DNA of 64,000 nucleotides, taken from the NCBI RefSeq assembly GCF_000519325.1, contig NZ_KI912613.1:1037369-1101368 (forward strand), written 5' to 3'. The stretch comes from Patulibacter minatonensis DSM 18081. GTDB lineage: Bacteria; Actinomycetota; Thermoleophilia; Solirubrobacterales; Solirubrobacteraceae. The notes beneath the pieces are model-generated. The model saw nothing but the letters and a program-made list of their open reading frames with translations, made no database searches and had not been told where the DNA came from. Positions 22,781 to 24,600 of the stretch are shown here, piece after piece. How positions within the stretch are numbered: the first letter of the stretch is position 1; each line of letters starts with the position of its first letter. A program made the translations under genes and the position numbers.

Positions 22781-23132
22781 CCCGGGGGTCGATGCGTCTC
22801 GCCCCACCGAACGACGGACCATCGCCTCGGGGGGCGGCGGAGCCGGGGGTCGACGCGTCAAGCCCCACCGAACGACGGACCATCACCTCGGGGCGGGCCG
22901 AGGGCCGGCGTCGATTCGTCGATCCTGGCCGAACAACGGACCATCGCCTCGCGGGGCGGCGGAGCCGGGGGTCGACACGTCGAGCCCCACCGAACGACGG
23001 ACCTTCACCTCGGGGGGCGGCGGAGCCGGGGGTCGCCACGTCAAGCCCCACCGAACGACGGACCATCACCTCGGGGGGCGGCGGAGCCGGGGGTCGCCAC
23101 GTCTCGCCCCACCGAACGACGGACCATCACCC
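22781..23132. repeat. Tandem array, six copies of a 61-bp unit
   Basis: The core CCACCGAACGACGGACC recurs at 22804, 22865, 22926 (degenerate), 22987, 23048 and 23109, exactly every 61 bp. A GGCGGAGCCGGGGGTCG segment sits between cores. The unit length is not a multiple of 3 and stop codons differ between frames, so it is not a coding repeat. It starts about 20 bp after the stop at 22761 and ends about 420 bp before the histone-like gene. Copies differ by a few bases, with the third most diverged. Confidence 0.95.
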
Positions 23133-23193
23133 GCGGCAGCCCTGGAGCGAGCCGGAATCCATGTGACGTCGCACACGCAGAGCGCCACGACCG

Positions 23194-23207
23194 CGAACAG
23201 TTGTTCG
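23194..23207. promoter_or_regulatory. Perfect SOS-box-like palindrome (CGAAC-N4-GTTCG)
   Basis: CGAACAGTTGTTCG matches the known Gram-positive/actinobacterial LexA pattern of CGAAC and GTTCG arms four bases apart. It lies 344 bp before the histone-like gene. A related everted pair, GTTCGA 23228-23233 and TCGAAC 23243-23248, is close by. Confidence 0.5.
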
Positions 23208-23452
23208 TGCAATCGCCTCGCTCCGGCGTTCGAGCGGACGGGTCGAACCGTCGACCACCCGGCGGGCCGCCCGCCCGCGCCCAGTACCCCTGAAATCGCC
23301 TCCCAGCAGGGAGATCCTGGCTCACGGCCGGTCCGGATGGTCGCCCCGACGACCGCCGCACGGCTTCCACGGACCCCCGCCCCCGACCGCGAACGACGGC
23401 GAACGCATCGCGTACGCCGTCCGATCCGCGGTGCAACGGGGCCGGGACGTCG

Positions 23453-23481
23453 TTGTAAGAACAGACGTTCGTCGATACATT
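23453..23481 (+). promoter_or_regulatory. Promoter of the histone-like gene with a LexA-like site inside the spacer
   Basis: TTGTAA (23453-23458) and TACATT (23476-23481) are separated by 17 bp, an optimal sigma-70-type layout. GAAC-N4-GTTC (23459-23470) starts at the first spacer base, so a repressor bound there would block RNA polymerase. Just downstream are palindromes CTTAG-AA-CTAAG (23489-23500) and AGCAGC/GCTGCT (23499-23520). Confidence 0.6.
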
Positions 23482-23550
23482 GGATGAACTTAGAACTAAG
23501 CAGCTTCCTCCGAGGCTGCTCCGTCCGCAGCCCCGACCCCGAGGATCCCC

Positions 23551-24600
23551 ATGGCCGACACCCCGAACACCACCAGCACCAGCACCACGAGCTCCGCCGC
23601 CGACAAGCCGGCCACCAGCACGGCCAAGCCTGCCGCCGCGAAGCCCGCCGCCGCCAAGTCGACCACGGCCTCCAAGCCCGCCGCGAAGCGCACCACGGCC
23701 GCGAAGCCCGCCGCCAAGCGCACCACCACGCGTCGCACCGCCGCGAAGCCCGCCGCCAAGCGCACCACCGCCCGCACGCAGGCCGCCGGCGCGAAGACCT
23801 CCGCCAAGGCCACCGCCACGCAGGCGTCCGGCGCCGCGAAGTCGGCCACCAAGGCCGCCGCCCCGAAGGCCTCCGCCGCCAAGGCCTCGGCCAAGCGCAC
23901 GAAGACGCAGGCCACCGGCGCCGCCAAGACCGCCGCGAAGAAGACCGCGACGACGACGAAGGCCAAGGCCCGCACCGCGGCCACGAAGGCCAAGAAGACC
24001 GACGCCGCCAAGGCGACCGAGTCCCGCATCGTCGCCGCGCGCCGCGTCGCCGCCGACTTCTACGCCGCCGCGCCGAAGAACCTCGAGGAGGCCCAGAAGC
24101 AGGCCGTCGAGGTCCGCGAGCTCGCCACGAAGCGCGTCGAGGCGTACACCGAGAAGGCCCAGGTCGTCTCCGAGAAGGCCGCGCTCATCAGCACGGGCGC
24201 CGTCCTCGAGGCCAAGGACGCCGCGGCCAAGGAGCTCGTCGCCCGTCGCGACGCCGCCACCAAGCTCGTCGCCGACCGTCGCGCCGCCGCCACGAAGCAG
24301 GCGCAGGCCCGTCGCAAGGAGCTCGACAAGCAGCTGAAGACGTTCGAGAAGCGCGGCGCCAAGGCGAAGGCCGACCTCGAGCGCGACCTCACCCGCACCC
24401 GCACGCAGATCGAGCGCGAGCTCCGCGAGCGCCGTGCCGCCGTCGAGGCCCGCATCAACGACCTGCCGTCGACGCCCGCCGAGCTGCGCACCGAGCTGCC
24501 CAAGCTCCGCGGCGAGGTCGAGGCCCGCGTGACGAAGGCCCAGAAGCAGGCCGCCGAGTACGCCGGCCAGGCGCGCGAGCGCGTCCTCGCCCTCGTCTAG
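23551..24600 (+). CDS. Histone-H1-like / HBHA-like Lys-Ala-rich nucleoid or surface protein
   Basis: A 349-residue protein. Residues 1-160 are almost only Ala, Lys, Thr, Ser and Pro, with repeated AAKP and AAKRTT blocks like histone H1 tails and the C-terminal tails of actinobacterial HU. Residues 160-349 are a long, highly charged helical region (for example KELDKQLKTFEKRGAKAKADLERD) that should form a coiled coil. Mycobacterial HBHA has the same two parts in reverse order. DNA compaction is the simplest role; surface adhesion is the alternative, although no signal peptide is seen. GAGGA precedes the ATG. The promoter holds an SOS-like site, and a strong hairpin follows the stop. Confidence 0.8.
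   Translation: MADTPNTTSTSTTSSAADKPATSTAKPAAAKPAAAKSTTASKPAAKRTTAAKPAAKRTTTRRTAAKPAAKRTTARTQAAGAKTSAKATATQASGAAKSATKAAAPKASAAKASAKRTKTQATGAAKTAAKKTATTTKAKARTAATKAKKTDAAKATESRIVAARRVAADFYAAAPKNLEEAQKQAVEVRELATKRVEAYTEKAQVVSEKAALISTGAVLEAKDAAAKELVARRDAATKLVADRRAAATKQAQARRKELDKQLKTFEKRGAKAKADLERDLTRTRTQIERELRERRAAVEARINDLPSTPAELRTELPKLRGEVEARVTKAQKQAAEYAGQARERVLALV

What the first reader, a model, noticed from the sequence alone, without database searches (positions are those of the whole stretch)
23194..23481. SOS-box-like sites control a histone-H1/HBHA-like gene
GAAC-N4-GTTC occupies the spacer of a good TTGTAA-N17-TACATT promoter, and a perfect CGAAC-N4-GTTCG lies 265 bp upstream with further GTTCGA/TCGAAC half-sites between. 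LexA in Gram-positive bacteria binds this pattern. DNA-damage control of a DNA-compacting protein would be notable.
Basis: partly seen in the sequence, partly recalled or inferred. Interest (0 to 1): 0.68.

Follow-up and report, generated by a model that had tools for sequence, protein, structure and literature searches.

The report
LexA-controlled histone-H1-like gene in Solirubrobacterales
In soil actinobacteria of the order Solirubrobacterales, the switch that turns on DNA-repair genes after damage (LexA) very probably also controls a gene for a basic, histone-H1-like protein, so DNA packaging or protection may be an old part of their damage response.

Summary
The two GAAC-N4-GTTC sites (23195-23206 and 23459-23470) are the two best matches in the 64-kb window to a LexA-box matrix trained only on other sites of the same genome. 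The genome (genus Patulibacter) uses this motif as its SOS box: it lies before lexA, recA, dnaE2, two dinB genes, an imuB-like gene, uvrA, uvrB, ruvC and others. The promoter box shares its 13-base core GAACAGACGTTCG with the box before lexA. The promoter box, not the distal one, is deeply conserved: 54 of 59 orthologous loci have a strong LexA-like box upstream (shuffles give 0.08). It usually sits in the -35/-10 spacer, and often there is a second box about 43 or 108 bp upstream. The pattern reaches the second family of the order. The gene family was found only in Solirubrobacterales (14 of 14 order genomes, 0 of 65 others in the class). It matches no known family: a basic KPAAKRTT-repeat N-terminus and a long helix. 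"HBHA-like" is not supported; "H1-like" holds by composition only. LexA repression is inferred with high confidence. DNA compaction is untested. The distal site at 23194 is of uncertain role.

The parts
23193..23208 (.). distal LexA-box-like site GCGAACAGTTGTTCGT, about 343 bp before the start codon
   Evidence: score 20.5, best in window; no counterpart in the two closest relatives L042 and L043
23457..23472 (.). proximal LexA box AAGAACAGACGTTCGT in the promoter spacer; core GAACAGACGTTCG identical to the box before lexA
   Evidence: score 19.7; conserved in orthologs
23453..23458 (+). -35 element TTGTAA (TTTACA in most other genera)
23476..23481 (+). -10 element TACATT, 17 bp from -35
23490..23499 (.). 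palindrome TTAGAACTAA just after the -10; only TTAGNNCTAA in the 5.5-Mb genome; TTA-N4-TAA at this place in 37 of 65 promoters
   Evidence: function unknown
23541..23544 (+). ribosome-binding-site-like GAGG, 6 bp before ATG
   Evidence: by inspection
23551..24600 (+). histone-H1-like gene, 349 aa, pI 10.8; residues 1-157 Ala/Lys/Thr-rich with KPAAKRTT repeats, 158-349 long helix

Best explanation
The gene at 23551-24600 belongs to the SOS regulon of a Patulibacter species. In undamaged cells a LexA dimer sits on the GAAC-N4-GTTC box in the spacer of its promoter and blocks RNA polymerase. After DNA damage RecA triggers LexA self-cleavage and the gene is switched on. Its product, with a very basic histone-H1-like N-terminus and a long helix, then most likely coats or bridges DNA and compacts or shields the nucleoid during repair. 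Shown by sequence: the sites, the genome's LexA motif, the promoter placement and the order-wide conservation. Inferred: LexA binding, induction by damage, DNA binding by the protein, and its role. The confidence given is for LexA control; for the DNA-compacting role it is about 0.4.
For: Genome motif: 20 exact CGAACN4GTTCG sites, 0 of the reversed control; neighbours include lexA, imuB-like, dnaE2, dinB, ruvC, uvrA, uvrB, SMC/RecN-like, HRQ1-type and DEAD helicases, radical SAM protein; recA and a second dinB carry a box with one flank changed. The matrix trained without this gene ranks both sites top of the window. Orthologs: strong boxes in 54 of 59 upstream zones against 0.08 in shuffles; 4.0 per kb there against 0.009 elsewhere in the same loci. 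lexA itself carries the same box in 21 of 22 relatives. Box present before one copy in all five sampled genomes of the second family, and as a perfect CGAAC..GTTCG in a divergent genus. Streptomyces venezuelae LexA binds tCGAAC-N4-GNNCGa (PMC9380542).
Against: No binding or expression data exist. In most other genera the left half of the proximal box is CAAAC, and in a few CGTAC; LexA's tolerance of these is untested. One Patulibacter relative (L044) has lost the left half. The promoter holds other conserved elements (TGTAAC, TTA-N4-TAA), so a further regulator may act. No test of DNA binding by the protein.
Confidence: 0.82

Rival explanations
1. The conserved spacer element is the operator of a different regulator with a LexA-like palindrome (CAAACANNTGTTCG), and LexA acts only through the upstream box or not at all.
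For: Left half deviates in a consistent way in most genera (CAAAC, CGTAC); neighbouring elements are also conserved.
Against: The deviating bases overlap the -35 hexamer TTTACA, which explains them. Patulibacter has GAAC..GTTC, divergent genera have perfect CGAAC..GTTCG, and many promoters carry a second canonical box.
Confidence: 0.1
2. LexA controls the gene, but the protein organises storage or polyphosphate granules on the nucleoid (like PhaF or AlgP) instead of compacting damaged DNA.
For: H1-like repeats joined to an amphipathic helix recall PhaF and AlgP (found; AlgP: PMC9239181); weak apolipoprotein-type helix matches.
Against: No phasin match among the families listed; SOS control of a granule protein has no obvious rationale.
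Confidence: 0.2
3. Chance motif matches in a GC-rich intergenic region.
For: With one mismatch allowed, the count in the window is near expectation.
Against: Genome-wide and comparative tests.
Confidence: 0.02

Closest known systems
LexA/SOS regulon of Actinobacteria (e.g. Streptomyces venezuelae, PMC9380542)
   Same: Box tCGAAC-N4-GNNCGa; core targets such as lexA, recA and dnaE2; radical SAM photoproduct-repair type genes
   Different: The S. venezuelae paper's main text never mentions nucleoid or histone; here an H1-like gene has a box throughout an order
Histone-H1-like bacterial proteins AlgP and PhaF (Pseudomonas)
   Same: Lys/Ala/Pro-rich repeat segment joined to a helical segment (layout of PhaF and AlgP from memory)
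   Different: Basic segment at the N-terminus, no phasin domain found, SOS-type promoter, found only in Solirubrobacterales
HBHA (mycobacterial heparin-binding haemagglutinin)
   Same: Helical coil plus Lys/Ala/Pro-rich segment (from memory)
   Different: Reverse order of segments; no family match; soil bacteria
RecN-dependent DNA supercompaction after damage (E. coli, PMC12462666)
   Same: SOS-linked condensation of the nucleoid, the proposed outcome
   Different: RecN is SMC-like; this protein is not

Membership tests
LexA/SOS regulon | Operator matches the LexA motif of the same genome | tested here: met
   13-base core identical to the lexA box
LexA/SOS regulon | Operator overlaps the promoter so that repression is possible | tested here: met
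   box in the 17-bp spacer, 23453-23481; transcription start not mapped
LexA/SOS regulon | Operator conserved in orthologous promoters | tested here: met
   one congener (L044) has a degenerate box
LexA/SOS regulon | LexA binds and the gene is induced by damage | not testable with these tools
   needs bench work
HBHA | Family profile match | tested here: not met
   no Pfam or NCBIfam match; I did not check that either library holds an HBHA model
HBHA | N-terminal coil followed by Lys-rich C-terminus | tested here: not met
   basic repeats are at residues 1-157, helix at 158-349; HBHA layout from memory
Eukaryotic linker histone H1 | Winged-helix globular domain | tested here: not met
   only the tail-like composition is shared
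Phasin (PhaF type) | Phasin domain | tested here: not met
   full protein no match; not among the 25 families listed for the helical part

The most novel reading that the evidence does not exclude
An order-specific chromatin protein is a core, ancestral member of the SOS regulon in Solirubrobacterales: damage switches on an H1-like protein through a promoter that in many species has two LexA boxes about 4 or 10 helical turns apart, and the protein condenses or shields the genome during repair.
Probability: 0.4. Interest if true: 0.75.

Novelty: new member of a known kind. Interest (0 to 1): 0.62.

Why it matters
SOS regulons are usually lists of repair polymerases, nucleases and division inhibitors. 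A histone-like protein under an old, order-wide LexA promoter would link genome packaging directly to the SOS response, and would name a testable candidate for damage tolerance in abundant but little-studied soil actinobacteria. It also gives a function-suggesting context to a protein family without a name.

Tried and rejected
HBHA and linker-histone membership: no profile match. Distal site as operator of a divergent gene: no convincing gene or promoter there, and in relatives with two boxes no convincing divergent gene was seen in the loci inspected. Half-sites as operators: common words, no support. Structure: AlphaFold gives mostly one long helix with pTM 0.34, so no fold search was made; sequence search of solved structures gave only designed bundles and generic helices. 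Literature: no paper found on LexA in Thermoleophilia beyond one metagenome survey, none joining histone H1-like with SOS and LexA. Two whole-genome searches failed on the server side.

Full report
Observation. The two sites are in the sequence as described: CGAACAGTTGTTCG at 23194-23207, and GAACAGACGTTC at 23459-23470 inside TTGTAA-N17-TACATT (23453-23481). The exact GAACN4GTTC occurs at no other place in the 64-kb window. The gene they precede is 23551-24600, 349 aa.

The motif is the LexA box of this genome. The window lies in a complete 5.52-Mb genome. CGAACN4GTTCG occurs 20 times there and its reversed control not once. One site is about 45 bp before the DNA-binding domain of the single lexA found, and a GAACN4GTTCG site lies about 130 bp before recA. 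Other sites lie before or at the start of an imuB-like gene, dnaE2, two dinB genes, ruvC, uvrA, uvrB, an SMC/RecN-like gene, an HRQ1-type helicase, a DEAD helicase, a radical SAM protein and a nuclease-domain protein. Several further sites lie inside genes or beside genes without a repair link and were left unassigned. A matrix built from 15 sites, without the gene in question, gives the two reported sites the two highest scores in the window, 20.5 and 19.7; the next is 16.3, inside the mrp coding gene, then 12.0. Fourteen of the 15 training sites lie by repair-linked genes; the other (L013:14098) lies inside the same gene cluster. The 13-base core GAACAGACGTTCG of the promoter site is the same as before lexA.

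Comparative test. The helical part of the protein finds relatives in 40 of 61 genomes of the family. In two congeners the arrangement is TTGTAA-GAACAGGTGTTCG-N4-TACATT. In other genera the usual form is GGTTTACAAACANNTGTTCG followed by a TAnnnT -10 element; the A of CAAAC falls in the -35 hexamer. I pooled these loci with 50 loci from named genomes and removed duplicates. Of 59 loci, 54 have a score of at least 16 in a zone of about 300 bases upstream; dinucleotide shuffles give 0.08 on average and at most 1. The density is 4.0 per kb in the zone and 0.009 per kb elsewhere in the same loci. The zone was set after seeing where the sites lie, and related species are not independent, so the shuffle figure overstates certainty. 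Thirty-six loci carry two or more boxes (score 10 or more), most often 43 bp or 102-109 bp apart. A class-wide draw of 79 genomes then finds the family in 14 of 14 Solirubrobacterales and 0 of 65 others. All five sampled genomes of the second family have a box before one copy, and genus g14, whose copies were missed by the first search, has TCGAACATCTGTTCGC and TCGAACGTCTGTTCGC. Two second copies lack a good upstream box. lexA has the same type of box in 21 of 22 relatives checked. In one congener (L044) the left half of the proximal box is lost though lexA keeps its box.

The protein. Residues 1-157 hold 27 Lys, 8 Arg, 4 acidic residues and 55 Ala, with KPAAKRTT repeats and no aromatic residue; the whole has pI 10.8. 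Residues 158-349 are predicted as long helices. The conserved core is L..VG..L..RD ... FE+RG ... ER ... R...ER. No Pfam or NCBIfam family fits. "Histone-H1-like" is right for composition; HBHA and linker-histone membership are not met. In most loci inspected the gene is followed by an mrp/apbC-type gene.

Mechanism. Most likely LexA occludes RNA polymerase by sitting between -35 and -10, and damage lifts this. Upstream boxes in other genera may strengthen repression. The distal box of the window, 264 bp upstream of the proximal one, has no counterpart in the two closest relatives and may be a lineage-specific auxiliary site or chance. The role of the protein, condensing or shielding DNA, rests on composition and regulatory context only.

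Known work. Streptomyces venezuelae LexA binds tCGAAC-N4-GNNCGa (PMC9380542); CGAACRNRYGTTYC is the Gram-positive consensus discussed in PMC2248561. The S. venezuelae paper does not mention nucleoid or histone. I found no paper on this in Thermoleophilia in the library searched. DNA compaction after damage is known through RecN in E. coli (PMC12462666). AlgP and PhaF are H1-like proteins tied to granules.

Noticed in passing
window 23490-23499: Palindrome TTAGAACTAA just after the -10; the only TTAGNNCTAA in the 5.5-Mb genome, and TTA-N4-TAA recurs 17-29 bases after the box in 37 of 65 promoters (34 of 4596 60-base tiles overall). Possibly a second operator or a 5'-mRNA element.
   Followed up: partly
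about 20 bases upstream of the -35 in relatives (TGCAAC at the matching place in the window, near 23433): Conserved TGTAAC element upstream of the -35 in most relatives; unexplained.
   Followed up: no
window 22782-23192: 61-bp tandem repeats (six in register) between the inositol-monophosphatase-like gene and the distal box, with CCGAACGACGGACCATC; one more two-copy array at genome position 4823321.
   Followed up: partly
window 23499-23520: Predicted 5'-UTR hairpin AGCAGCUUCCUCCGAGGCUGCU; congener L042 has AGCACCUUCCCCGAGGUGCU at the same place, with paired changes.
   Followed up: no
L044: A Patulibacter relative keeps the promoter but has lost the left half of the box while its lexA keeps one: a natural test of SOS control.
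   Followed up: no
L050, L053, L074, L101 and others: Two LexA-like boxes about 108 bp apart (10 helical turns); 43 bp in other genera.
   Followed up: partly
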